DNA from: Paenibacillus sp. IHBB 10380
Lineage (GTDB): Bacteria > Bacillota > Bacilli > Paenibacillales > Paenibacillaceae
Direction of reading: 5' to 3'
Assembly (NCBI RefSeq): GCF_000949425.1
Contig: NZ_CP010976.1
Location: 5,270,001-5,334,000, forward strand
DNA length: 64,000 nucleotides
Position numbers and translations under genes: made by a program. This document shows positions 2,469 to 16,061 of this stretch, piece by piece. Position 1 is the first letter of the stretch. Each line of letters begins with the position of its first letter. The notes beneath the pieces are model-generated. The model worked only from the letters and a program-made list of their open reading frames with translations. It was not told where the DNA came from and searched no databases.

Positions 2469-3455
2469 TTATGACTTTGAAATTAAGGATATAAAACCAG
2501 AAGGAATACTTTCGTTATTCTCATGCCTTTTTAACGTGTCGCTATAATTTTGTAAAAATAAGAACGTCATAAAATCTGCATAACGAGGTACCATTTGAAG
2601 GGGAGTTTTTCCTTCAGAATTAGTAAGGTTTGGATCACACCCGTAATTAAGAAGTAATTCAACCATTTGAAAATCAGATTTAGACGCAGCTAGAGAAAGC
2701 ATTGTGTTACCATCAACAAAACGATCTGGGTTTGCTTCACGTTGCAACAATTCTTTTACAACATCATAATAACTATTTTTAACTGCATAATAAAGAGGCG
2801 TGTAGCCTTCATCGTCTAGCGGATCAGAAAAAGAGCCTTTTTCCAATAAAATCAATGCAGCTTTTGGATATCTCTGCCTTAAAGATTCATGAAGTAATGT
2901 GCGTCCGTTAACCGTAAGTTGATCCACATCATAATGACCGGTATCGAGTAAAAGTGTTAGGATTTCTGAAGATCGTAAAATGTAATAGCGAGATAATAAA
3001 AAGGTCTGATCTTCTTCATATATTGAAAGATCTAAGTTAACATTGAGTAAAAGTTGAACCATCTCTATATTTTTAGATTTGCATGCATCCATTAACAAAT
3101 CATATTCTTGATTCTTAGCGTTATTTTGCTGCGGAAGTCCAAATCGAAGAAGAAGTGTAAGAAGGGAATAGTTTTTTTTTGTTATAATTTCGAGTATAAG
3201 CTCTCTGGGAAGAAGTTTAGTATCAGCTCCATGTGAAAGTAACAATGGGACAAGTTCCATTTGATTCTTTACAATTGCAAGATGAAGTGCTGATCTGTAT
3301 GTATCTGAAGTGCATAAAATATCACTGTTTTCCTGAAAAATAGTGTTGACGTTGATACCTTCATTTAGCAAGTGAATTACTTCTTCGTTTGATCCTTCAG
3401 AGACTGCAATTAAAAATTGAATGTTAAGTTCGTTTGATTCGGTATTTAATGACAT
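2469..3455 (-). CDS. Ankyrin-repeat protein
   Basis: A 328-residue protein made almost entirely of ankyrin repeats. Recognisable units include SALHLAIVKNQMELVPLLLS (near residue 54), LMDACKSKNIEMVQLLLN, TLLHESLRQRYPKAALILLE, TPLYYAVKNSYYDVVKELLQ and MLSLAASKSDFQMVELLLN, about seven to eight in total. There is no signal peptide or membrane segment, so it is a cytoplasmic protein-binding scaffold whose partner is unknown. The ATG follows GGAGATTATAGT. It is the last gene of the leftward P450/hydrolase/MFS unit, 100 bases behind the MFS gene, and could be co-transcribed or independent. Confidence 0.88.
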   Translation of the reverse strand: MSLNTESNELNIQFLIAVSEGSNEEVIHLLNEGINVNTIFQENSDILCTSDTYRSALHLAIVKNQMELVPLLLSHGADTKLLPRELILEIITKKNYSLLTLLLRFGLPQQNNAKNQEYDLLMDACKSKNIEMVQLLLNVNLDLSIYEEDQTFLLSRYYILRSSEILTLLLDTGHYDVDQLTVNGRTLLHESLRQRYPKAALILLEKGSFSDPLDDEGYTPLYYAVKNSYYDVVKELLQREANPDRFVDGNTMLSLAASKSDFQMVELLLNYGCDPNLTNSEGKTPLQMVPRYADFMTFLFLQNYSDTLKRHENNESIPSGFISLISKS

Positions 3456-3554
3456 ACTATAATCTCCATTCTATTATTTATTGGTAGAGAACAAACAATA
3501 ATTTGGCTAAGCTTGGTTTTTTATCAATTTTACAGGAGTGGTAGAGAAATAAAG

Positions 3555-4712
3555 TTATATCTTGAGCTCAATTGGCTTTGAAATGATTTGCCTTCGTAAT
3601 ACATAGCAGAGAAATATAGTTGGTATAGCGACTAAGGACATCCATAAAAACGGTAAACTAGGAGATATTTGATATAAATATCCAGATAATACTGTTAAAA
3701 GTCCAGTGCCAAGACTCATCGCTAATGATGCGTAAATGCCTTGTGCAGATGGTATCAACTCAGGCGGAACCTTTTCATTTACAAATCGAAAAAAGGCGTA
3801 ATGGGTCAATCCGAATGTTAGGGAGTGAAGAATTTGTGAAAATACAAATACAAGTATGTTGCTCTCGAAGTAAATTAACAACCACCTAGTCGCCGACCCC
3901 AGAGCTGCTATGAAAAACAAAGATGGAATTGAGAAGTTTTGGAACACTCGGTTAGAGATATAAAAAAAGAATATTTCACAGAAGACTGCCAGCGATAGAA
4001 TAATGCCAATTATGCTGTTTGCTGCTCCTAGATGCTGTAAATAGAGTACACCGTAGTTATAGTATGCTGCATGCGAACCCTGAAGTAGAGTGCAGATTGT
4101 GATACAAATCAAAAAGTCTTTTGACTTGAAAAGGTAAAATAAAGAAATTCGATTAGACTCAATTTTGATGTTTATTGGGTGTGGAACTCTAAAAGAAGCA
4201 GATAGTGACAATAAAAAACTACCAGCGATCATAATGTAAATAATTACTTGTTCACCATTGTTGGTGATAAACCATCCGACTAAAGTGAGTGCAAAGACGT
4301 ATCCAAAGGACCCTAAGGATCTACTTTTTCCATAATTAATTGTTTGAGCTTTGACTAGCAAGGAAGCGATCGTTTCGTTCATGGGCAATAGCATTGGATA
4401 GACTAAGCTGAATAAAACGGTTACTAAGACCAATATGTCAACACGGTGTAGCGGTATAAAGAGTAATAAAATTGTAGTAGTCAACCAGGAAACTAAAATC
4501 GATAACCTAGAAAGCCGAACAAATTTGCATAGCATTGGGAATAAATACAACGTAGAAACAGATCGTGTCACATATCCAATTGCAATTATTAGACCTACCG
4601 TCTGAACCGGAATTTCTTTTGAGGTTAACCATACTGTCCAATAAGGAAGAAATATACCCCAAGTAAAAAAAAACGAAAAAAATCGAAGTGACATCCATCG
4701 TTGATAAATCAT
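3555..4712 (-). CDS. MFS transporter (LacY/PPP-like family)
   Basis: A 385-residue polytopic membrane protein with about twelve hydrophobic segments, starting MIYQRWMSLRFFSFFFTWGI. GKSRSLGSFGYVFALTLVGW in the middle and the overall layout are characteristic of the MFS_1-like group that includes 3-phenylpropionate and nucleoside-type proton symporters. The substrate is not evident. Its ATG overlaps the stop of the hydrolase gene by four bases (ATGA), showing translational coupling with the P450-hydrolase pair. An exporter or importer for the product or substrate of those enzymes is a reasonable inference. Confidence 0.85.
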   Translation of the reverse strand: MIYQRWMSLRFFSFFFTWGIFLPYWTVWLTSKEIPVQTVGLIIAIGYVTRSVSTLYLFPMLCKFVRLSRLSILVSWLTTTILLLFIPLHRVDILVLVTVLFSLVYPMLLPMNETIASLLVKAQTINYGKSRSLGSFGYVFALTLVGWFITNNGEQVIIYIMIAGSFLLSLSASFRVPHPINIKIESNRISLFYLFKSKDFLICITICTLLQGSHAAYYNYGVLYLQHLGAANSIIGIILSLAVFCEIFFFYISNRVFQNFSIPSLFFIAALGSATRWLLIYFESNILVFVFSQILHSLTFGLTHYAFFRFVNEKVPPELIPSAQGIYASLAMSLGTGLLTVLSGYLYQISPSLPFLWMSLVAIPTIFLCYVLRRQIISKPIELKI

Positions 4713-5359
4713 AAATAAGCCGCCCTAACTTTTGCAACGATTTCGTGATCCAGACCCCCACGGATTATTTGAAACCATTCCACCATTTTTTGAAAAGCGA
4801 TTAAAGCCGACTCTTTGCGGTATTGAGTAGAGTACGGGTCACACCAACCATGTCGTCCAGCAAGCTGAAATATGGTAATTTTTCTATTTGTTTCTAACTC
4901 AGCTATAAGTTCTTTCGCTTGAAAGGCCGTTTCTCTTTCAGAATAAAAAAGTAACACTGGACATTTAGGCTGAATATCTAGATGGTCCCTTATTCGGGAA
5001 CCGTAATAACCAATTACTCCATCGCACAAATATTCATCTTCACAACATAACCAAGCACAAGTTGCCCCGACGCTATAACCAATTATCAACACAAACTCAT
5101 AGTTTGGGCGGATTTGCTGTAACAAATGTTTGATTTGAATTGTAGCGTCTTTAAATCCAACATATTCAGTGAAATTACGATAAGCTTCTTGCTCTTGGTC
5201 ATATCCATACGATGTATCGACACCTAGCAAGTTTGGGCAATATACATCGAACTGCAATTCAGAAAACTGTAAGCAGATATTTTGTATATGTTTATTGACA
5301 CCATATATTTCATGAACAACTATAACAGCATTGCGTGAGTCGTTGTTAAACATCAGCAT
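4709..5359 (-). CDS. Dienelactone-hydrolase-like alpha/beta hydrolase
   Basis: A 216-residue cytoplasmic alpha/beta hydrolase of the dienelactone hydrolase type. AVIVVHEIYGVNKHI at the N-terminus is the family's first strand and oxyanion region. The nucleophile elbow reads GYSVGA, with serine where classical dienelactone hydrolases carry cysteine, and GRHGWCDP near residue 170 supplies the histidine. An Asp or Glu for the triad is not certain. AGGAGG lies about 12 bases before ATG 5359; a second ATG two codons later (5353) is possible. It is 77 bases behind the P450 gene and overlaps the MFS gene by four bases, so it forms one unit with them. The substrate is unknown. Confidence 0.82.
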   Translation of the reverse strand: MLMFNNDSRNAVIVVHEIYGVNKHIQNICLQFSELQFDVYCPNLLGVDTSYGYDQEQEAYRNFTEYVGFKDATIQIKHLLQQIRPNYEFVLIIGYSVGATCAWLCCEDEYLCDGVIGYYGSRIRDHLDIQPKCPVLLFYSERETAFQAKELIAELETNRKITIFQLAGRHGWCDPYSTQYRKESALIAFQKMVEWFQIIRGGLDHEIVAKVRAAYL

Positions 5360-5436
5360 AAATTACATTTTCCTCCTTTAGTGAAAATTAGGTAAACCAA
5401 GAGGTTAAAAACTTCTTGATTTACCTAGTAAGTATT

Positions 5437-6696
5437 TTAGAATTTTACTGGCATCGTAGTAATTCCGTGAAATGTTGGATTCATCGTCCACGACGGCTTG
5501 TTCAAATCGTAAAGTGGAGAGATGTTCGGGAATTTCTCGATCACTTCTAGCATGATTTCCGTGATTTCTGCACGTGCAAACGATGCTGCTATGCAAGCGT
5601 GATAACCTCCACCAAATCCTAGATGCTTGCTATTTCGTTCGAGAATAAATGCTTCTGGATTTTCAAACTTTCTTTCGTCACGACCTGCTGAGCCAAGGAA
5701 GAAGAAAACAGAATCTCCTTCTTTTATCAACTGACCGTGAATTTCTATGTCATGTGCAGCATGACGTGTGATGTATTGGATAGGACCTTCCAAGCGCATA
5801 CACTCATCTTGTACTTTTGGTAACATAGACATGTCATTTTTTAACTCGTTAAACACTTTCGGGTTTTTGAATAATAAGTGTAAAGTGTTACTCAACATGA
5901 ATTGAGGGATTTTATGTCCGCCAAATATTAAATGAATAGTTTGTGCAATGATCTCATCATCACGCAACCCATCATTTTCTCCAGGATTATCGGAAATTAA
6001 CCGGCTCAACAGGTCATTTTTTTTCTCTCTTCTACGGTCTGCAATTGCTTCAGAGAGAAAGGCATACATTTCTTTTAAACTCTTTTTAATTTGTTCACTT
6101 ATTTCTTTATCTGGCACGAGTGCTACCACGAAATTCTGCATGAACATAGCAATATCATCCGACCATTTAATAAATCTCTCAATTTCTTGAACGGGTATCC
6201 CTAACATTTTACAAAGTACCATTGCAGGAATTGGATGAGCAATATCAACAACGAAATCAAAGCCATCAGGTTTGGTTTCAACAACTTTTTGGATAATTTG
6301 AGAGACAATATTTTTTATTTCTGGTTTGATTGCCTCGACCTCATTGGTCCAAAATGCACGATTCATATGGCTACGTAGCCTTGTATGGTCTGGACGATCG
6401 TTATAGATCATCCATGTGGAAATTATATCTACGATATCCTTAAAATGACGGTCTTCCCCTTCGGGCAGGCTATTCATTTTGTGAGTAATTAATGGACTTG
6501 TTATAAACGTCTCACCAATCAGATATTTCATAATGTCATCATAGCGGGTGATGAACCAGGATTTCATTTCTTCATGCCAAAAAATAGGTTTTTTTTCACG
6601 TAATTCCGTGTAGTGGTCATAACAGTTGTACAGATACTCCTCGTTGTTGACACTAAATTGTTTAACATTTTGATCTTCTTCGATTACATTCTTCAT
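5437..6696 (-). CDS. Cytochrome P450 with atypical I-helix motif
   Basis: A 419-residue soluble bacterial P450. The helix C motif HTRLRSHMNRAF, the ExxR motif ECMR (near residue 298) and the haem loop FGGGYHACIAA with thiolate Cys near residue 368 are all present. The I-helix, normally A/G-G-x-E/D-T-T, reads GGHKIP near residue 259, so the conserved acid and threonine that deliver protons to bound oxygen are missing. The Gly two residues after the haem Cys is also Ala. Start ATG 6696 follows GGGGGAATAGAA; an upstream in-frame ATG (6762) has no comparable site. It is the first gene of a unit with a hydrolase, an MFS permease and an ankyrin protein. Its substrate and redox partner are not encoded here. 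Confidence 0.93.
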   Translation of the reverse strand: MKNVIEEDQNVKQFSVNNEEYLYNCYDHYTELREKKPIFWHEEMKSWFITRYDDIMKYLIGETFITSPLITHKMNSLPEGEDRHFKDIVDIISTWMIYNDRPDHTRLRSHMNRAFWTNEVEAIKPEIKNIVSQIIQKVVETKPDGFDFVVDIAHPIPAMVLCKMLGIPVQEIERFIKWSDDIAMFMQNFVVALVPDKEISEQIKKSLKEMYAFLSEAIADRRREKKNDLLSRLISDNPGENDGLRDDEIIAQTIHLIFGGHKIPQFMLSNTLHLLFKNPKVFNELKNDMSMLPKVQDECMRLEGPIQYITRHAAHDIEIHGQLIKEGDSVFFFLGSAGRDERKFENPEAFILERNSKHLGFGGGYHACIAASFARAEITEIMLEVIEKFPNISPLYDLNKPSWTMNPTFHGITTMPVKF

Positions 6697-6715: not shown

Positions 6716-7262
6716 TTATTTATAGAAGACCAATTGGTCCTTCTGTTGTAAGGATATTGCAACTACTTCCCTATCTGATAAATGGAAAATCGTATCACAT
6801 ATCATTCTTGTTTTATGAGTATCACTCTGGGTCTCTTGTAACCATTGTTCAGAATCAATGAGAAGGTTTCTGAATGCCAATTTGGGTAATTTTCCTTCAA
6901 ACAGACAATCGAAAATTCGTTTAATATGATCGTGGGTCCTATTCTCATACTCAAGATCTAAGAACAAAATACGTTTTGTGCTATCTGCATGAGTATTGAC
7001 AGTTTCACCTGTTGAAGTTGAGTGATCTCAATTTTGCTAAGACAAGGTTGTAAATGATTTATTCTGAAATTTTCGAGTTAACGAAGTGCTTGTGTTATCA
7101 ATATCTTGAGATACAATAGCGATATATTCCACAATAGCTGATCGAACCTCTGTTGAACGAACCATGTTAGAGAATTTGTTTCGACGAAAAAACTTGACTA
7201 GACCTTTTAGATCATAGATAGCATTCTATGTCGTCTGCAATCTCAACTATTCTTATAAAGCA
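6716..7262 (-). pseudogene. Decayed dGTPase-like (HD-domain) gene remnant
   Basis: Three frames must be joined. From 7262 leftward one frame gives IRIVEIADDIECYL then a stop; an overlapping frame continues YDLKGLVKFFRRNK and SAIVEYIAIVSQDIDNT. A third frame, from about 7015, gives ILFLDLEYENRTHDHIKRIF and ends KTRMICDTIFHLSDREVVAI. The EIADDI-x5-YDL piece resembles the metal-binding HD-domain segment of deoxyguanosinetriphosphate triphosphohydrolases, and the last piece resembles their C-terminal (ICDYIAGMTDRYAL-type) segment. The N-terminal half is missing. The last 83-codon frame is open and ends 19 bases before the P450 start, so a shortened product cannot be excluded. Identification is by recalled family patterns. 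Confidence 0.55.
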
Positions 7263-7739: not shown

Positions 7740-8435
7740 TTATTTTTTTTCGTTTTTAAGTGCCTTAAGTAAAGCTACAATCGATAAGAGGAAGGCTGCA
7801 ATAGATACAATCAATATAATAATATCCATAATTGAAGAGGAACTCGTTGAACTGGAAGTGTCCGATATGTTAGAAGGTTCTTGATCTGATTCAGATGGTG
7901 CAGGTGTTGTCGAGTCATGACCATGAGAATCGTTGTGGGATGCTTCATCGCTGGCTGGTGCTGTAGTGACTTGTGTCATCGAGTGAGGCAATTCGGACTT
8001 CTCATCGCCAGTCCATTCTACAATGCTTCCATCGTTATAATATTGAAATGCATCCCAGGCAATGACTTCATCTTCTTTAGGATTCTGGGCAACGAAATTA
8101 AATTGTTGAAATTCGCCTGCGGAGATACCATTACCTGTAGCGCTCCATGTAATGGACACTACTTTGCCGGTACTGTCTTTCTCAGTGCTTACTTCCCACT
8201 CGGGCACAGGTTGATATTGTTTGAAGTCGACCCCGGCTGGGATTTTGAGTGTAACCTTAGTCGTGGGAATATCCTTCTCGACTGGAATCTTGATGGAATA
8301 TGTTTCCCAAGCACCGGGGGCAGATGTAGCCGGTTTGACAGTTACGTGAGCGCTGGCAACACCGCTGAATAACAATAAACTTGCAGTAACAGTAACGAAT
8401 AAGGTGGATAATTTGGACTTTTTAATTTTAATCAA
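7740..8435 (-). CDS. ycnI: YcnI family copper-related exported, membrane-anchored protein
   Basis: A 231-residue exported protein of the YcnI (DUF1775) family. After a signal peptide ending ASA, mature AHVTVKPATSAPGAWETYSI starts with the N-terminal His that binds copper in this family. WSATGNGISAGEFQQFNF and the PHSMTQVTTAP tail of the domain follow. A His/Ser/Asp-rich linker (SHNDSHGHDS) and a C-terminal membrane segment (IIILIVSIAAFLLSIVALL) with KNEKK anchor it. TTG 8435 is chosen because GAGGAAATTATC precedes it and the protein then begins at the signal peptide; the earlier ATG would add a leader containing that site. It follows ycnJ in one operon and would bind or deliver copper outside the membrane. 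Confidence 0.9.
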   Translation of the reverse strand: MIKIKKSKLSTLFVTVTASLLLFSGVASAHVTVKPATSAPGAWETYSIKIPVEKDIPTTKVTLKIPAGVDFKQYQPVPEWEVSTEKDSTGKVVSITWSATGNGISAGEFQQFNFVAQNPKEDEVIAWDAFQYYNDGSIVEWTGDEKSELPHSMTQVTTAPASDEASHNDSHGHDSTTPAPSESDQEPSNISDTSSSTSSSSIMDIIILIVSIAAFLLSIVALLKALKNEKK

Positions 8436-8493
8436 GATAATTTCCTCTTTTCTGATGATTATTATTGAATATTTAAGCATGAAATGTAATGGG

Positions 8494-10167
8494 TTATTCC
8501 GTTCCTACTCGGAAGGTGAAGGTGGTATCCCAGGACTCCAATGAATGAGTTAATACATGAACTTGAGCATTCCATCTTCCCGCTATGCTTATAAGATCCT
8601 CTTTACGTAACGGTGTAGAAGGGGTGATCGGAATAATAATCTCATACTTGCCCATATCCATATCTAGCGAAGTAAGGGTAAGCTTAATCTGCTGAACATC
8701 TGTGAATTCTTGTCCTGCAGCATTGTGAATATTAACCTCGAAGGTGTTATTCCCTGTTATATTAGGGCTAACCCCGAGAGAGATTCTATACCCATTATCC
8801 AGCTTGTGACTTTGATGAATCGGACCGGGGGAACTTAGTCCTGTTGGTATGTTGCTTAGAACGGCTGATAGGACAAGAACAACAACACCTACACTGAGCT
8901 CTGACCATATACTTCGGTTTAGTTCCTTATTCATCTGTTTACCACGGAATAAGTTAAACGCGGCCAATCCAATCATAATAAGCAGTAACCCTGATTTCAT
9001 AAGCAAAATTTGACCGTATAAAGTGTGAAACAATGCATATACCGTAGGTACATGTTGAAAGCTTGCATAGATACCGCTCACAATCAGCAGTGCCACAAGT
9101 ATCGTTCCCCAGCGAGAGAACGTGCGTATGACCGAGAAATACACTTTCTTTCGATCTGGACGATAGGTGGGTAGAGAAGCTTCACCAGGTAGAATAGCAG
9201 CTAATGCCAATAATGAGCCTAACCAGATGGAAACAGCCGATAGATGGACGAAATCCATAAGAATGGATATTACTTGATGTTCTGTTGTGGGTGCATGACC
9301 TATGAATGCTTTAGATAAAAGGATACCGAATCCTAATAGCAAGGCTACGAAGGCACCATTTTTTCTGAAGCGTGAGCTTAAATGGTTACGATGAACAACA
9401 ATCAATGTTCCGCCAACTAGAATGATCAGTACCAATTGAACCATCCACACGGTACCAAAGCTTGTATGAATCATTTGACCTAACCACACTGTGCTCCATA
9501 CCTTGCTCCACCCGATCCTTGCGTCAATGGTCGTTTGTAATGGAAGACTTAGCAATATGCTCAGAGCAATGCCGAAATACGAAGTCCATAGCAGTCTGCG
9601 GCTACGCTGTGGTAAAAGGAAATTTCCTTTTGGGTTGGCCGGATACATGAACAAATAGAAGCTGAGAATGCCCATGAAGAAAGCGATGCTTAAATACAGT
9701 AACCAACGAATGGTGATTAAATCTAATCCAGGGAAGTAACTAGAAGTTGTTTTTGTAGAAGGAAGAGGATTCTCACTCTCGTTATTCCCCATCTGAAATT
9801 GAAGGGTTCCTTCTATAGGGTGACCATCCCCTGATACTGCCTTCCACACGATAACGTAATTTCCATCAGGTAAATCAGGCTTCACATTAACCTCTAATAC
9901 GGATGGACGATCTTCTGCTATATGAACATCGTCTAAATCTACACGATCTCCGGCTGAATTGATAACCTGTACGGAATGGAATGCCGGCTGAATAGATTCG
10001 TTAAATTGAAGTGTGACCTGAGCCGGAGATTTTGTTAATACTTCGTTATCGGAAGGACTTGATTGTTGAAGAAAAGCATGTGCATAGGTGGGAGTCGGAA
10101 GCAGTAATAGGCATATAGCAAACACCACCATAATTCCCATGCACAGTAGCCTTTGAATCTTATTCAT
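8494..10167 (-). CDS. ycnJ: YcnJ-like copper transport protein (CopC-CopD fusion)
   Basis: A 557-residue membrane protein. After the signal peptide, residues about 30-130 form a CopC-like domain starting at His (HAFLQQSSPSDNEVLTKSPA, with DGHPIEGTLQF at its end). A CopD-like membrane domain of about eight segments follows (HLSAVSIWLGSLLALAAILP, FSRWGTILVALLIVSGIYAS), then a C-terminal extracytoplasmic YtkA-like part (LTSLDMDMGKYEI). This order matches Bacillus subtilis YcnJ, involved in copper uptake. ATG 10167 follows AAGGTGTTGCAAT. It is the first gene of a ycnJ-ycnI pair 58 bases apart. The usual YcnK repressor is not adjacent, so control may differ; copper genes csoR-copZ-copA lie about 2.7 kb away. 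Confidence 0.93.
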   Translation of the reverse strand: MNKIQRLLCMGIMVVFAICLLLLPTPTYAHAFLQQSSPSDNEVLTKSPAQVTLQFNESIQPAFHSVQVINSAGDRVDLDDVHIAEDRPSVLEVNVKPDLPDGNYVIVWKAVSGDGHPIEGTLQFQMGNNESENPLPSTKTTSSYFPGLDLITIRWLLYLSIAFFMGILSFYLFMYPANPKGNFLLPQRSRRLLWTSYFGIALSILLSLPLQTTIDARIGWSKVWSTVWLGQMIHTSFGTVWMVQLVLIILVGGTLIVVHRNHLSSRFRKNGAFVALLLGFGILLSKAFIGHAPTTEHQVISILMDFVHLSAVSIWLGSLLALAAILPGEASLPTYRPDRKKVYFSVIRTFSRWGTILVALLIVSGIYASFQHVPTVYALFHTLYGQILLMKSGLLLIMIGLAAFNLFRGKQMNKELNRSIWSELSVGVVVLVLSAVLSNIPTGLSSPGPIHQSHKLDNGYRISLGVSPNITGNNTFEVNIHNAAGQEFTDVQQIKLTLTSLDMDMGKYEIIIPITPSTPLRKEDLISIAGRWNAQVHVLTHSLESWDTTFTFRVGTE

Positions 10168-10470
10168 ATTGCAACACCTTCTCATTAGTACTTAGGAGAT
10201 TATTTTATCTTGATTATGTGTAAATTGTAATGACTCTAATGGGCTATAGAGGGATACTGGAAGATATGACATTCATTTAGATGACGTAGTAAGTAAGAGT
10301 ATATGGGAGGATGTCTTTGACTCGGTAGGGTGAGTCCGGCTCTCATGTGCTCAGTCTGTTATATAGCAGGAGGGCAGCGCTTAGGTTGTTTTCACTATAA
10401 CTCCGTAACCTCTATAATTAGAGAAGAAGATATCGACCAAGTCAAAAACCAATCAGGAGTGATTAAGTTA

Positions 10471-10638
10471 ATGAACCAAGCGGTGTTGGAACGTCGTAGT
10501 GTAATCTTGAAAAAGAACATTCATGAAATGATTCTTCAGGATAATCAGAGTGGAATTAGCCACCAAAAGAGTAATTTGTTACAGCATATGATTAAAGAAC
10601 TTCACCAAACTTCGCATGAAATGAATGCGAGAAGGTAA
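10471..10638 (+). CDS. Small hypothetical protein, basic and helical
   Basis: Fifty-five codons from ATG 10471, ten bases after CAGGAGTG. The product is highly charged and helix-prone (RRSVILKKNIHEMILQ, NLLQHMIKELHQTSHEMN) and has no domain that I recognise. A TATAAT box at 10411-10416 lies ahead and a bidirectional terminator follows about 100 bases after the stop, which supports a real transcript. The same frame is open further upstream to 10330, so a longer form is possible. The stretch 10168-10470 otherwise holds only the presumed ycnJ promoter region. Confidence 0.45.
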   Translation: MNQAVLERRSVILKKNIHEMILQDNQSGISHQKSNLLQHMIKELHQTSHEMNARR

Positions 10639-10742
10639 GTGAAGCAATACCTAATTTTCAATGGCTCTTTATAACGAATATGATATGAATAAGGCTTCGA
10701 GTATCCGATTTTGCATTGATTGTCGACTCCTCTTCCCAGATT

Positions 10743-10797
10743 TAAATAAAAAAATGGCCTTTATTCGCATCATCTGCGAAAAGGCCGTTTTTATTTA
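10743..10797. terminator. Bidirectional terminator between converging genes
   Basis: AATGGCCTTTATTCGCA pairs with TGCGAAAAGGCCGTT around a short loop, with A-rich sequence before and T-rich sequence after on both strands. It can end both the small plus-strand gene and the leftward regulator operon. Confidence 0.85.
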
Positions 10798-10860
10798 AAG
10801 GTATCGCTCTAACAAAATACGTTTGTACGCTTATTGCCGTAATGCGCAGTTTTTGGGGTA

Positions 10861-12204
10861 CTACGGGGCCGTTACTTGTGGCCCTACGGAAGAGTCAGCT
10901 CCCGATTTTTGTTTGGAAGCTGTTACTTGTGGGCCTACGGAAGAGTCAGCTCTCGATTTTTGTTTGGAAGTTGTTACTTGTGGCCCTACGGAAGAGTCAG
11001 CTCTTGATTTCTGTTTGGAAGCTGTTGGTTCTAGCACTGCGGAAGAGTCCGCGTTCGATTTTTGTTTGGAAGCTGTTGGTTCTAGCTCTACAGAAGAGTT
11101 AGCGCTTGATTTATCTTTGGAGACTGTTGGTTCTAGCTCTACGGAAGAGTCTACACTCGAATTCTGTTCGGAGGCCGTTGTGCTCGGCAATTGTGTAGGT
11201 GTCTGACTGGCTTTGGGATCGGTTAAAGCGCAGCCACTTATGAAGACTAACGTTGCCATTCCAAGGAACGACCAACGATACGAATTTGATTTAAACTGTT
11301 TGATCATTTTAATTCTCCTTTGTAGTTGTATTTTGCTTCCTGTAATATTTACGTTTCCTGCAACTTGAACAGGCTGCGAGAAATTTTCCAACAATTTAAT
11401 GAGTGTATATCCATAATCATGTCTTTTGTCAGGAGTAAGGTAACTGAGTGCAAGAGCGTCGCTTGCGATTTCCTGGTCTTCCCGCATTCGACGATAAGCG
11501 TACCAAAGAACTGGATTAAACCAATGAATAATCAGTAAAACATTCATGAACCAATTAATCCCAATGTCGTTTCGTTTGCTGTGAGCCAGTTCATGTAAGA
11601 ACACATGCTGCAATTGGTCATCACTTAAGCTGTTTAGAATAGTGTGGGGCATAATCAATTGGGGTTTCACCACACCGAAAAGAGTTGGTGTTCCCAAATT
11701 ATAAGATTCGACAAGAGCAATGGGTTTATTTATCGACATCATTTTTTTACAATGATCGAAAAGCTGCAGTATTCTTACGTTTGTTATCGTAACGGTCTCT
11801 TTTTTCAGCTTTTGGGCAAATTTCCTATTGATATGGATTGTGTATGTCCCTAATAAACACACTCCAACTAGCCATATAAACAATACATATCGGTAAATAG
11901 ATTGTGCAGTAGTTTCCGGTGCAACAGCACTTGTAAGTAGTTCTTCCTGATTAACTTGTACAACCGATTGAACTGAGTCCGTATTACCGATCCAATTATA
12001 AATACTGAATTCGCTCTCTGGGCTCCATGGCAGAATTAATCGTACAATAACCAACAGCCACATTAAGTAATGCCATCTTGGTTTCAGACGATGCTTAAGC
12101 ATGTACTGCATCATTACAATCAGTACAACCAAAACACTTGCCATGGCCGAGACAGACCATACCCAATCAAAGAGATTAATCAGGTGTTCGGTTATTCTAG
12201 TCAC
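10861..12204 (-). CDS. BlaR1/MecR1-type M56 membrane protease with repeat tail, no penicillin-binding domain
   Basis: About 447 residues. Three hydrophobic segments span residues 10-130 and a gluzincin-type M56 protease domain follows with HELAH (FLHELAHSKRNDI) and a third-ligand region around REDQEIASDALAL. A final hydrophobic segment ends in a lipobox-like FISGC near residue 335. Classical BlaR1 and MecR1 continue into an external beta-lactam-binding domain of about 250 residues. Here there is only a low-complexity tail of six 17-residue repeats (e.g. ADSSVGPQVTASKQKSG), so the sensed signal is unlikely to be read by a penicillin-binding fold. Start GTG 12204 lies six bases after GGGAAGG; GTG 12210 is also possible. 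It follows blaI by 69 bases and should cleave or inactivate that repressor. Confidence 0.85.
   Translation of the reverse strand: MTRITEHLINLFDWVWSVSAMASVLVVLIVMMQYMLKHRLKPRWHYLMWLLVIVRLILPWSPESEFSIYNWIGNTDSVQSVVQVNQEELLTSAVAPETTAQSIYRYVLFIWLVGVCLLGTYTIHINRKFAQKLKKETVTITNVRILQLFDHCKKMMSINKPIALVESYNLGTPTLFGVVKPQLIMPHTILNSLSDDQLQHVFLHELAHSKRNDIGINWFMNVLLIIHWFNPVLWYAYRRMREDQEIASDALALSYLTPDKRHDYGYTLIKLLENFSQPVQVAGNVNITGSKIQLQRRIKMIKQFKSNSYRWSFLGMATLVFISGCALTDPKASQTPTQLPSTTASEQNSSVDSSVELEPTVSKDKSSANSSVELEPTASKQKSNADSSAVLEPTASKQKSRADSSVGPQVTTSKQKSRADSSVGPQVTASKQKSGADSSVGPQVTAP
10871..11176. repeat. Six tandem copies of a 51-bp coding repeat
   Basis: Six head-to-tail 51-base units, beginning GTTACTTGTGG in copies one to three (10871, 10922, 10973) and GTTGGTTCTAG in copies four to six (11024, 11075, 11126). 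They encode the 17-residue repeats at the C-terminus of the M56 protein. The first three are nearly identical and the others diverged, the pattern expected from recent expansion at the 3' end of the gene. Being a multiple of three, gain or loss of a unit keeps the frame. Confidence 0.93.
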
Positions 12205-12273
12205 ATTCACCCTTCCCTTTCCTTAATCGAGTCAAAGATTTAACGCCAACTACAATGCCAATCCGCAAATGAT

Positions 12274-12648
12274 TTATTCTGTTTTGTCGTCAAGGATGTT
12301 TTTTAATTCTTTAATATCTTCCGGAGATAGCTGTTCTTCTTTCAAAAAGTTAACAAGCAACGGCTTAAATGCGCCGCCGTAGATTCTTTTTAGGAAGGAC
12401 TTGGTCTCGGACTTTACACATTCGTCTTCGGATACTAACGGGAAATAAGCATATACCCTGTTTTTTTGTGAATAGGAAATGGCTTGTTTTTGAGCTAATC
12501 TGTTTAAAAGCGTTCTTATTGTATTAGGTTTCCAATCCGTTTGACCTTCTAAAGCCTCAATCACTTCGTTTGCCGTGCATGGTGTTTTTGCCCAGAGAAT
12601 TTTCATTACTTCCCATTCCGCATCGGATATATGGGGAACATTTTTCAC
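12274..12648 (-). CDS. BlaI/MecI/CopY family repressor
   Basis: A 124-residue winged-helix repressor. ISDAEWEVMKILWAKTPCTA and WKPNTIRTLLNRLAQKQAIS are the family's DNA-binding helices, and the C-terminal half (FLKEEQLSPEDIKELKNILD) is the dimerisation part. It sits directly before the BlaR1-like protease gene. Upstream are two TACANNTGTA operators overlapping its own promoter, so it should repress its operon until the membrane protease relieves it. No beta-lactamase or copY-type target gene is adjacent; the copper genes start about 200 bases away in the other direction but carry CsoR-type sites instead. Confidence 0.92.
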   Translation of the reverse strand: MKNVPHISDAEWEVMKILWAKTPCTANEVIEALEGQTDWKPNTIRTLLNRLAQKQAISYSQKNRVYAYFPLVSEDECVKSETKSFLKRIYGGAFKPLLVNFLKEEQLSPEDIKELKNILDDKTE

Positions 12649-12674
12649 TGGTTTACCTCCTAACCTTTATTGAC

Positions 12675-12713
12675 TACAAATGTAATACTACATGTGTAAT
12701 ACTCAGTTGTCAA
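12675..12713 (-). promoter_or_regulatory. Promoter of the blaI-like operon with two BlaI operators
   Basis: On the minus strand TTGACA (12713-12708), a 17-base spacer and TAGTAT (12690-12685) form a good housekeeping promoter. TACATGTGTA (12689-12698) and TACAAATGTA (12675-12684) fit the BlaI/MecI half-site palindrome TACANNTGTA; the first overlaps the -10 box. Autoregulation is the straightforward reading. Confidence 0.85.
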
Positions 12714-12844
12714 ATACATAATCAAATGATGAATCCTAAGCTGCTCTCTCCGTCAAAGGTGCTTTGAGCAATGAGGCTCTGAGTAGGGAGAATAAAAAAA
12801 CGACTCTGAAGAAAAATAATAAAATAAGTGGACAGTTAAAATAC

Positions 12845-12872
12845 TTGATATACCCATGGGGGGTATGATAAG
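12845..12872 (+). promoter_or_regulatory. csoR-copZ promoter with CsoR operator
   Basis: TTGATA (12845-12850) is followed by ATACCCATGGGGGGTAT (12850-12866), the G-tract inverted repeat bound by CsoR, and an AT-rich -10 region near 12867-12872. The operator fills the promoter spacer, so bound apo-CsoR would block transcription and copper would release it. Confidence 0.85.
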
Positions 12873-12918
12873 ATGAGGTTACATCCTAGGATGTGTAGAT
12901 GGAGCAGGAGGTATGTCC

Positions 12919-13281
12919 ATGGAAATGGGTAATGAAGGTAATACATCGGAACAGCCGAAGACTCCTGAAATTGAGGCCGATCATTGTCATACAGATGCTA
13001 CTGAGAGACATAGCCATCACTCAGATCAGACCAAGAGTAACCTCATAACTCGCTTAAATCGTATTGAGGGCCAAATTCGTGGTATTAAAGGAATGATTGA
13101 GAAGGATACGTATTGTGATGACGTGCTTAATCAGATTGCAGCCAGTCAAGCAGCATTAAATGGTGTAGGTAAATTATTGCTTGAAGGACATATGAAGAGT
13201 TGTGTCGTGGAGCGTATTGAAGCCGGCGATCATGATGTTATTGACGAACTACTGAAGACGGTAAACAAATTAATGAAATGA
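12919..13281 (+). CDS. csoR: CsoR-type copper-sensing repressor with His-rich N-terminal extension
   Basis: A 120-residue helical DNA-binding repressor. From residue about 40, NLITRLNRIEGQIRGIKGMI is the CsoR/FrmR core. The Cu(I) ligands are present as Cys in YCDDVL and His and Cys in GHMKSC (x-C-H-C pattern), separating it from nickel- and formaldehyde-sensing relatives. The first 40 residues are an extra acidic and His-rich arm (HCHTDATERHSHH) of a kind not needed for the core fold. ATG 12919 lies seven bases after AGGAGG; ATG 12913 directly abuts it. It is followed 19 bases later by copZ, and copA has its own CsoR site. Confidence 0.93.
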   Translation: MEMGNEGNTSEQPKTPEIEADHCHTDATERHSHHSDQTKSNLITRLNRIEGQIRGIKGMIEKDTYCDDVLNQIAASQAALNGVGKLLLEGHMKSCVVERIEAGDHDVIDELLKTVNKLMK

Positions 13282-13300
13282 ACATTAGGAGGAAATGAAT

Positions 13301-13501
13301 ATGCAACAAGCAACGTTAAAAGTGGAAGGTATGTCTTGTAACCATTGTTTGAACGCAGTAGAAGGAGCAGTTAAGAGTGTGGGTGCGGTTGGTAAGGTTA
13401 ACCTAGAACTCAAGAATGTGACTGTTGAATATGATGATACTAAAGTAAATTTGGACACGATCAAGGAAGCCATTGTTAATCAAGGGTATGATGTAGTTTA
13501 A
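13301..13501 (+). CDS. copZ: Copper chaperone CopZ
   Basis: A 66-residue HMA-fold metallochaperone that carries Cu(I) to the CopA ATPase in the cytoplasm. The metal site GMSCNHC is at residues 10-16. The start ATG 13301 is eight bases after AGGAGGA; an in-frame ATG at 13295 is too close to it. It is co-transcribed with csoR. Confidence 0.95.
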   Translation: MQQATLKVEGMSCNHCLNAVEGAVKSVGAVGKVNLELKNVTVEYDDTKVNLDTIKEAIVNQGYDVV

Positions 13502-13566
13502 TTCAATTAGAGGTGCGGGTAGAGGATTGTATAATTCCGATAACCGCGCATTTTTTTAATGTTATT

Positions 13567-13583
13567 ATACCCTATGGGGGTAT
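13567..13583 (+). promoter_or_regulatory. CsoR operator before copA
   Basis: ATACCCTATGGGGGTAT is a near-perfect copy of the site before csoR and is followed by the TATACTATAAA -10-like stretch. It lies about 45 bases before the copA start, so copA has its own copper-controlled promoter. Confidence 0.85.
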
Positions 13584-13625
13584 TATACTATAAATGGTGA
13601 ATCCTCAAAAAAGGGAGAGCGTGAG

Positions 13626-16061
13626 ATGACAAATTCTCAAAAGACGGGTGAAAAGCAAGTTTCGTTGCAAATTACGGGTATGACTTGCGCCGCATGTGCG
13701 ACCAGGATTGAAAAGGGCTTAAGTCGGATGGAAGGGATAGCGGGAGCTAACGTGAATTTGGCGTTAGAGCAGGCCTCGGTCACCTTTGATTCTAACCAAG
13801 TAGATATACAGACTATTGAGCAAAAAATTGAGTCTCTTGGCTATGGGACTTTAAAGGAAACGATGGATTTCGAGATTACGGGCATGACCTGTGCCGCATG
13901 TTCAACTCGGATTGAAAAAGGGCTTAACAGGATGGAAGGCATTACTCAAGCCAATGTGAATCTAGCTCTCGAAACGGCTCATGTTGAATTTGCTCCTGGG
14001 CAAATAACGGTTAAAGAAATAGTAAATAAGGTAGAGCAACTTGGCTATAAAGCTATTCCGAAGGAGGAAGCGAGCGATACAGCCGATCTGCGTCAACGAG
14101 AAATGAATCGGAAGAAATGGAAATGGATCATCTCCTCGTTGCTTTCATTACCTTTACTTTGGGCAATGGTAGGTCATTTCTCATTTACTTCATGGATTCC
14201 CGCTCCATCATTGTTCATGAATCCATGGTTCCAGCTTGTTCTGGCCACACCTGTACAGTTCATTATTGGCGGTCAATTCTACATTGGCGCTTACAAGGCA
14301 CTGCGTAATCGTAGCGCTAATATGGACGTATTAGTGGCCTTAGGGACATCGGCAGCTTATTTCTATAGTCTGTATCTCACGATAGATTCATTGAGTATGG
14401 CGATGAACCATCAAGTAGAGATGTACTATGAGACAAGCAGTGTCCTTATTACGTTGATCTTAGTGGGCAAGTGGTTCGAAGCTGTAGCGAAGGGGAGATC
14501 CTCGGAAGCGATTAAGAGCTTGATGGGATTACAGGCTAAGACGGCTTTAGTTGTTCGTAATGGGGAAGAGATCAGTATTTCTATGGAAGACGTTGTGGTT
14601 GGCGATATCATTATCGTGAAGCCAGGTGAGAAGATACCCGTCGATGGTAAGGTGATTGAGGGGATTTCTTCTATAGATGAATCTATGCTTACCGGTGAAA
14701 GTATACCTGTAGAGAAGAATATTGGCGATCCTGTGATTGGAGCTACACTGAACAAGAATGGTATGCTACGTATACAAGCGACTAAAGTCGGTAGAGAAAC
14801 AGCGCTTGCTCAGATTATAAAGGTCGTAGAAGAAGCGCAAGGATCGAAAGCGCCTATTCAGAGAATTGCTGATGTGATCTCAGGTATCTTCGTACCGATT
14901 GTAGTGGCGATAGCAGTCATTACGTTCCTTGTGTGGTATTTGGTTGTGGAGCAGGGACAATTCTCTAGTGCGCTAGAGAAAGCCATTGCGGTGCTCGTCA
15001 TTGCCTGTCCATGTGCGCTAGGTCTAGCAACACCAACTTCTATTATGGCTGGCTCGGGCAGAGCTGCGGAATATGGCATTCTTTTTAAAGGTGGAGAGCA
15101 TCTAGAATTGGCACAAGGAATTGAAGTCGTTGTACTGGATAAGACTGGCACAGTGACTCATGGTAAACCTGTCTTAACAGATGTCTTACCTGCGGACAGC
15201 ATGACAGAAAGTGCCCTTCTTCGGATGACTGCTGCTGTAGAGAAGCATTCTGAGCATCCACTAGCGGATGCTATCGTTCAGGGGGCTCTTCTTCGAAGTA
15301 ATGGCTTAGAACTTCCTGTGGCGAAGCAATTTGAGAATGTTCCTGGATATGGTGTGAAGGCTTTTGTTGATGGTCGTAAAATGCTAGTAGGCACACGTAA
15401 ACTAATGGCTGAGAATGGAATTGATCTAGGTACAGCAAGTGAAACGATGAATCAACTTGAAACGGATGGAAAGACAGCCATGCTCGTATCTATTGACGGT
15501 AAATATGCAGGAATTATAGCTGTGGCGGATACAATTAAGGAGACTTCTAAAGCGGCAGTGTCTAGGCTGCAAAGCATGGGCATTGAAGTCGTTATGATCA
15601 CGGGGGATAACAAACGAACAGCTAAGGCGATTGCTGATCAGGCTGGAATTAAGTCTGTGCTTGCAGAAGTTCTACCCGAAGGTAAGGCTGAGGAAGTGAA
15701 GAAGTTACAGCAGGGTGGGAAAGTCATTGCTATGGTAGGTGATGGGATTAATGACGCACCAGCCTTAGCGACTGCTGATGTTGGAATGGCGGTTGGTACA
15801 GGTACAGATGTAGCGATGGAAGCTGCTGATGTGACATTGATGCGTGGTGATCTGAACGCAGTAGCAGATGCTATTGTGATGAGCCGTAGAACGATGAGTA
15901 ACATTAAGCAGAATTTATTCTGGGCACTGGGATATAATGCAATAGGAATCCCAATAGCAGCTGCAGGATTTCTAGCACCGTGGCTTGCGGGGGCAGCTAT
16001 GGCATTCAGTTCAGTCTCCGTTGTTCTGAACGCTCTCCGTCTACAACGTGTGAAGTTGTGA
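13626..16061 (+). CDS. copA: Cu(I)-exporting P-type ATPase CopA
   Basis: An 811-residue P1B-type ATPase that pumps Cu(I) out of the cytoplasm. Two N-terminal HMA domains each carry GMTCAAC (near residues 18 and 88). Eight membrane segments follow, with the transport motif [10 protein letters not shown]. The phosphorylation site [11 protein letters not shown], the actuator motif LTGESIPV, the HP motif (SEHPLADAI) and [10 protein letters not shown] are all intact. The length is normal. GGGAGAG precedes the ATG. It receives copper from CopZ and is derepressed by CsoR. Confidence 0.97.

What the first reader, a model, noticed from the sequence alone, without database searches (positions are those of the whole stretch)
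2469..6696. P450-hydrolase-MFS-ankyrin unit with an atypical P450
The P450 keeps ExxR and the haem Cys but its I-helix reads GGHKIP where A/GGxE/DTT is expected, so the usual oxygen-activating acid-alcohol pair is absent. P450s like this often do not perform ordinary monooxygenation (for example peroxide-driven or coupling chemistry). It is transcribed with a Ser-type dienelactone-hydrolase relative and a translationally coupled MFS permease, so the unit looks like a small dedicated pathway. I do not recognise it as a described system. The ankyrin protein at the end could be a scaffold or chance neighbour.
Basis: partly seen in the sequence, partly recalled or inferred. Interest (0 to 1): 0.7.

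Follow-up and report, generated by a model that had tools for sequence, protein, structure and literature searches.

The report
Odd P450 in conserved nucleotide mini-cluster
A small bacterial gene set built around an unusual oxidising enzyme (a cytochrome P450 with a lysine where the usual oxygen-activating acid sits) recurs in distantly related bacteria beside genes that look able to break down DNA building blocks, which suggests an undescribed pathway that makes and exports a small molecule; in this genome one gene of the set is broken.

Summary
The P450 (5437-6696, minus) has GGHKIPQ where AGxETT is expected, keeps ExxR and the haem Cys, and is followed by a Ser-type DLH hydrolase and an MFS permease overlapping it by ATGA. 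GGHK marks a discrete family: 71 homologues besides the window's own protein carry it (about 40-75% identity), and the next relatives are 23-28% identical without it.

The ankyrin gene was found in none of 14 related loci. The conserved fourth gene lies upstream: a dGTPase-like HD phosphohydrolase, present in 13 of 14. In the window it is a broken remnant (about 6725-7225). Two actinobacterial loci add a purine nucleoside phosphorylase.

I propose a horizontally moving mini-pathway: a purine (deoxy)nucleotide is dephosphorylated, the nucleoside, base or a derivative is oxidised by this P450, processed by the hydrolase and exported. The product is unknown and no activity was tested. Peroxide-driven chemistry is possible but disfavoured, because the haem loop is of the ordinary kind. 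My literature searches, in an incomplete library, found no description. New variant of a known kind; the window's own copy is incomplete.

The parts
5437..6696 (-). Cytochrome P450 of the GGHKxPQ family, 419 aa
   Evidence: Pfam p450 7.8e-30; carries every one of the 41 columns invariant in the 43-row family alignment, being one of its rows; AlphaFold2 model pLDDT 88.1, P450 fold
5902..5922 (-). Codons of GGHKIPQ (residues 259-265), replacing the I-helix AGxETT
   Evidence: sequence; 43 of 43 rows keep G259, G260, H261, K262, P264 and Q265
4709..5359 (-). Ser-type dienelactone-hydrolase-family protein, 216 aa
   Evidence: Pfam DLH 80.5 bits, cutoff 21; Ser96 and His170 invariant in 7 aligned sequences
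3555..4712 (-). MFS permease (MFS_1_like), 385 aa, overlapping the DLH gene by ATGA (4709-4712)
   Evidence: Pfam MFS_1_like 160.9 bits, cutoff 25.2; sequence
6725..7225 (-). Broken remnant of the dGTPase-like HD gene: C-terminal part only, with stops; the catalytic HD half is not there
   Evidence: tblastn E 1.5e-7, 3.8e-6 and 5.0e-6 with the HD proteins of L018, L016 and L017; no hit at E<=1 with those of L019, L020 and L022; frames printed. The whole-genome search with the L017 protein did not report it

Best explanation
A horizontally spread mini-pathway, HD - P450 - DLH - MFS, which in two actinobacterial loci is preceded by a purine nucleoside phosphorylase (PNP). Shown: the gene order, the invariant GGHK-P-Q P450 family, intact catalytic motifs of the HD enzyme in relatives, a PNP in two loci, and loss of the HD gene's catalytic half in the window. 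Inferred: the HD enzyme strips triphosphate from a purine deoxynucleotide (dGTP-like); PNP, dedicated or housekeeping, may release the base; the P450 oxidises the nucleoside, base or a close derivative; the DLH hydrolyses an ester or lactone; the MFS protein exports the product. Lys262 replaces the proton-relay acid and probably anchors a polar or anionic group of the substrate over the haem, so that the substrate helps oxygen activation. Electrons more likely come from redox partners than from peroxide. In this genome the HD step is lost, so the unit either leans on a housekeeping dGTPase, has been repurposed, or was recently inactivated.
For: HD gene beside the P450 in 13 of 14 related loci, DLH in 12 of 13 testable, an MFS gene or fragment in 13 of 13 testable; 14 control loci of ordinary P450s with 1.5 kb flanks gave HD 0, DLH 0, window-type MFS 0, one other MFS. 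Ten contig lengths are shared between the family-P450 list and the HD list. HD motif residues H64, H103-D104, H112, E115, D203 invariant in 11 of 11; TIGR01353 dGTP_triPase above cutoff for L016 and L017. PNP directly before HD in Nocardia and Amycolatopsis, NF006054 above cutoff (246 and 226 bits, cutoff 218), each an extra copy beside one other PNP in its genome. Fixed polar residues in the P450 (Q187, H261, K262, Q265) suggest a shared polar substrate (inference).
Against: No activity tested and no product known. PNP is in only 2 of 14 loci. Genomes without a cluster PNP can also hold two PNPs (G000, G061, G089), so an extra copy is weaker evidence than it seems. HD proteins of L019, L020 and L022 score below the dGTPase cutoff (116, 74 and 84 bits against 152). 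The Ralstonia-type P450 branch has no neighbourhood data here. The window's HD gene is broken, so the local unit may not work. Neighbouring MFS genes are not all of one type.
Confidence: 0.45

Rival explanations
1. The P450 is a peroxygenase: Lys262 holds an acidic substrate as Arg does in CYP152 and H2O2 drives the oxidation.
For: A basic residue sits where CYP152 has Arg, and the alcohol is absent; the review describes Arg-Pro replacing Asp-Thr in CYP152 (PMC5818669, passages).
Against: CYP152 has Arg-Pro, here Lys-Ile-Pro. The review says the Cys loop of peroxygenases differs; here Phe or Tyr seven residues before Cys is kept in 43 of 43 rows. P450s lacking only the alcohol but driven by redox partners are known (EryF, recalled).
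Confidence: 0.2
2. The unit salvages or detoxifies modified deoxynucleotides or a foreign compound: HD and PNP break them down, P450 and DLH degrade the rest, MFS imports or expels.
For: HD, PNP and DLH are degradative families; the window MFS is related to import-type families (Nuc_H_symport, 3-phenylpropionate).
Against: Patchy distribution (see Tried and rejected), swapped MFS types related to drug efflux families in L017 and L019, and a kinase-like gene in L017 look more like a product pathway (inference).
Confidence: 0.2
3. A tailoring P450 for a fatty-acyl or polyketide substrate; HD and PNP act on something else or are accidental.
For: Best solved relatives by profile are PksS and P450BioI; a source names a Ralstonia member after RhiH of rhizoxin biosynthesis (label not tested).
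Against: No carrier-protein, PKS or NRPS family came up among the neighbours that I ran through Pfam or NCBIfam; other flanking ORFs were only glanced at. The HD gene is too constant (13 of 14) to be accidental.
Confidence: 0.15
4. A defence unit: the dGTPase-like enzyme depletes dNTPs during phage infection and the other genes assist.
For: HD proteins of L016 and L017 match the PADLOC dGTPase model (191 and 196 bits) and, below cutoff, the anti-phage dGTPase model.
Against: P450, DLH and MFS gave no PADLOC match; a P450, hydrolase and exporter are not expected parts of dNTP-depletion defence (recalled).
Confidence: 0.05

Closest known systems
CYP152 fatty-acid peroxygenases (P450BSbeta, OleT)
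   Same: Basic residue in the I-helix in place of the acid, no alcohol, a proline next to it or nearby
   Different: Lys-Ile-Pro instead of Arg-Pro; ordinary haem loop; different neighbours; substrate unknown
P450EryF (CYP107A1)
   Different: EryF keeps the acid (recalled); here the acid is replaced by Lys
Anti-phage and housekeeping dGTP triphosphohydrolases
   Same: HD motif and GGFExNAQ-like stretch; TIGR01353 above cutoff in two loci
   Different: A separate, shorter clade tied to the P450; other dGTPase-like genes exist in 7 of 8 carrier genomes
Small nucleoside clusters with an HD phosphohydrolase (oxetanocin OxsA/OxsB, cordycepin Cns1/Cns2; recalled)
   Same: HD phosphohydrolase beside a redox enzyme in a small nucleoside pathway
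   Different: There the redox enzyme is a radical-SAM or an oxidoreductase; here a P450 with DLH and MFS

Membership tests
Cytochrome P450 superfamily | Pfam p450 match, ExxR and haem Cys | tested here: met
   104.5 bits, cutoff 22.8; E298, R301 and C368 in 43 of 43 rows
Cytochrome P450 superfamily | Usual I-helix acid-alcohol pair | tested here: not met
   Lys262-Ile/Val263 in 43 of 43 rows; not required for membership
CYP152 peroxygenases | Arg-Pro in place of acid-alcohol | tested here: not met
   Lys-Ile/Val-Pro; feature from PMC5818669 passages
CYP152 peroxygenases | Altered Cys loop without the Phe seven residues before Cys | tested here: not met
   Phe in 37, Tyr in 6 of 43 rows; feature
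CYP152 peroxygenases | H2O2-driven turnover of fatty acids | not testable with these tools
   needs an assay
dGTP triphosphohydrolase (HD partner in relatives) | TIGR01353 above its cutoff of 152.35 bits | tested here: inconclusive
   167.4 (L016) and 169.2 (L017) above; 115.6 (L019), 73.9 (L020) and 84.3 (L022) below; the other six HD proteins not scanned
dGTP triphosphohydrolase (HD partner in relatives) | Catalytic H, HD, H, E, D set (roles recalled) | tested here: met
   H64, H103-D104, H112, E115, D203 invariant in 11 of 11
dGTP triphosphohydrolase (window copy) | Intact HD catalytic half | tested here: not met
   only the C-terminal part, with stops
Purine nucleoside phosphorylase (L019, L020) | NF006054 above its cutoff of 218 bits | tested here: met
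   225.7 and 246.0 bits; the equivalog models TIGR01698 and TIGR01700 are below their cutoffs
Dienelactone hydrolase family | Pfam DLH above cutoff | tested here: met
   80.5 bits, cutoff 21
Dienelactone hydrolase family | Cys nucleophile of the classical enzyme (recalled) | tested here: not met
   Ser96 in 7 of 7 aligned sequences

The most novel reading that the evidence does not exclude
A previously undescribed P450 family dedicated to a purine (2'-deoxy)nucleoside or nucleobase drawn from the dNTP pool by a dedicated dGTPase-like enzyme (and PNP). A lysine anchors the substrate over the haem in place of the proton-relay acid, giving a four- to five-gene pathway to an exported nucleoside-type metabolite shared by horizontal transfer across several phyla.
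Probability: 0.28. Interest if true: 0.82.

Novelty: new variant of a known kind. Interest (0 to 1): 0.6.

Why it matters
If right, a minimal pathway diverts DNA precursors into an oxidised, exported metabolite, and a P450 family has replaced its proton-relay acid with lysine in every full-length member seen here. Both points can be tested directly with a few enzymes from non-pathogenic Bacillales. The repeated damage to the HD gene hints that the dNTP-consuming step is costly (inference).

Tried and rejected
Ankyrin as a scaffold: tblastn at 1e-3 matched only the window, none of the 14 related loci (some loci are short on one side). NCBIfam hits of the P450 (cyclodipeptide-associated, TxtE, CYP119) lie far below their cutoffs. 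The 3-phenylpropionate transporter label is just above cutoff in one model (272 against 259) and far below in its sister (214 against 699), so I take no substrate from it.

Mobile or viral carriers: no family P450 in plasmids at 1e-60; P0061 at 1e-30 gave 125 plasmid records, all under 60% identity, the 20 listed at 28-31%, which I take as ordinary P450s; none in phages; none in viral contigs.

Papers: ten searches, of which seven were aimed at the unit. I saw listings and abstract starts; several lists were cut (20 of 33, 20 of 42, 20 of 39). No listed title or abstract start describes the unit. Two papers were opened, found passages only: PMC5588734 (not used) and PMC5818669. One search, on a P450 for phosphorylated substrates, gave nothing useful. 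Most subscription papers are not in the library.

Surveys of the family P450, hits of genomes: 7 of 299 (starting genome included, six new), 1 of 369 (29), 1 of 296 (30), 1 of 343 (41), 1 of 99 (42), 2 of 104 (43), 1 of 297 (74); the hits were only genomes already known. In 60 relatives the window genome alone had it; the other matches were ordinary P450s (E<=0.001). The same genome can be drawn in more than one survey.

Promoter and terminator scan: 20 promoter-like sites against 21.7 expected, 2 terminator-like against 3.0, so no information. In one search the rows hk_L030 and hk_L032 were read in a wrong frame and are not used. The fold library offered no cellular predicted structures. I could not get neighbourhoods for the Ralstonia/Pseudosulfitobacter branch.
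Full report
Observation. The P450 I-helix reads G259 G H K262 I P Q265; in the five alignments to solved P450s that were shown, Lys262 falls on the acid and Ile263-Pro264 on the threonines. ExxR and the haem Cys are present. MFS and DLH overlap by ATGA. The segment 2469-7225 has GC 0.357 against 0.421 for the window, in line with acquisition from elsewhere.

The real neighbourhood. L049 and L050 are longer takes of L019 and L021, so there are 14 loci. An HD-domain gene is on the P450's upstream side in 13 of 14 (not found in L023, whose P450 is a fragment); in 11 of these 13 it ends within about 25 bases of the P450 or overlaps it, and in L016 and L043 transposase genes stand between. DLH follows in 12 of 13 testable loci (the L022 contig ends after the P450; L023 lacks it). 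An MFS gene or fragment is in 13 of 13 testable loci: of the window's type and downstream in nine (seven intact, pieces in L023 and L050), of other types in L017, L018 (fragment), L019 and L020. The ankyrin gene was found in none of the 14. Control: 14 loci of ordinary P450s (27-30% identical; 1.5 kb flanks, L010 cut by a contig end) gave HD 0, DLH 0, window-type MFS 0 and one other MFS. The protein lists share ten contig lengths between a family P450 and an HD protein (45889, 4286476, 7275, 51642, 24922, 262549, 445828, 474974, 7452, 17109); two of them are the contigs of L017 and L018.

The HD gene and its loss. In relatives it is dGTPase-like: TIGR01353 above cutoff for L016 and L017, below for L019, L020 and L022; PADLOC dGTPase for L016 and L017; H64, H103-D104, H112, E115 and D203 (L017 numbers) invariant in 11 of 11. 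Seven of eight carrier genomes hold another dGTPase-like gene elsewhere. The window's genome gave one match, of 59 bits, elsewhere, and that search did not report the remnant. tblastn against the window finds the C-terminal part at 7225-6725 with stops, using three of six HD queries; I saw no HD motif in the frames upstream of it. Damage recurs: P. thracensis keeps only the C-terminal part of HD with DLH and MFS in pieces; the P450 of P. planticolens has an internal stop; in L043 a transposase gene splits the HD match and the P450 reading frame starts late; Streptomyces ISL-43 has a P450 fragment and MFS pieces.

Purine link. In Nocardia and Amycolatopsis a purine nucleoside phosphorylase stands directly before HD (46% identical over the matched stretch; NF006054 above cutoff; nearest solved relatives are PNPs, 7zsq and 1g2o). 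Each of the two genomes has one further PNP elsewhere. Against this: the window genome, G061 and G089 also have two PNPs without one in the unit, and the other 12 loci show no PNP at tblastn 1e-3. PNP together with a dGTPase-like HD gene in one unit is my main reason for a purine deoxynucleoside route; it is an inference.

Mechanism. Inferred steps: nucleotide to nucleoside (HD), nucleoside to base where PNP takes part, oxidation (P450), hydrolysis (DLH), export (MFS). The review of P450 peroxygenases (PMC5818669, passages) says that CYP152 enzymes have Arg-Pro in place of the acid-alcohol pair, that the Arg binds the substrate carboxylate, and that their Cys loop differs from that of monooxygenases. 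Here Lys takes the Arg position, with Pro one residue further on, but Phe or Tyr seven residues before the Cys is kept in 43 of 43 rows. I therefore favour anchoring of the substrate by Lys262 with electrons from redox partners over peroxide use. Nothing of this was tested.

Verdict. I found no description of the system in the searches named above. It combines known kinds of parts in a new way, with unknown chemistry, and the local copy is incomplete.

Noticed in passing
window 10871-11179: Tandem array of a 51-base unit (6.1 copies, 84% matches) inside the 3' end of a BlaR1-type peptidase M56 gene (10861-12210, minus) next to a penicillinase-repressor-family gene (12274-12648).
   Followed up: partly
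window 7740-16061: Copper-related block beside the unit: DUF1775 protein, CopC-CopD fusion, and a metal-sensitive repressor gene, followed by a long ORF (13626-16061) that reads like a heavy-metal P-type ATPase (by eye).
   Followed up: partly
L044 11253-11678; L046 11150-11581 and matches in L045, L047, L048: A protein of about 143 aa overlapping the end of the MFS gene, 58-93% identical among five loci, without a Pfam match above cutoff in the two scanned.
   Followed up: partly
L020 10006-11282: In the Nocardia locus the DLH gene is followed by a GNAT-family gene and a haem-oxygenase-like iron enzyme gene (Haem_oxygenas_2; fol_rel_CADD below cutoff).
   Followed up: partly
L017 4457-6702: In P. 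marchantiophytorum an APH-family kinase gene and a Bcr/CflA-like MFS gene overlap by 4 bases and precede HD, a layout that resembles self-protection.
   Followed up: no
L055-L062: Eight viral contigs encode relatives of the cluster HD protein (29-42% identity in the best segment), while no family P450 was found in viral contigs.
   Followed up: no
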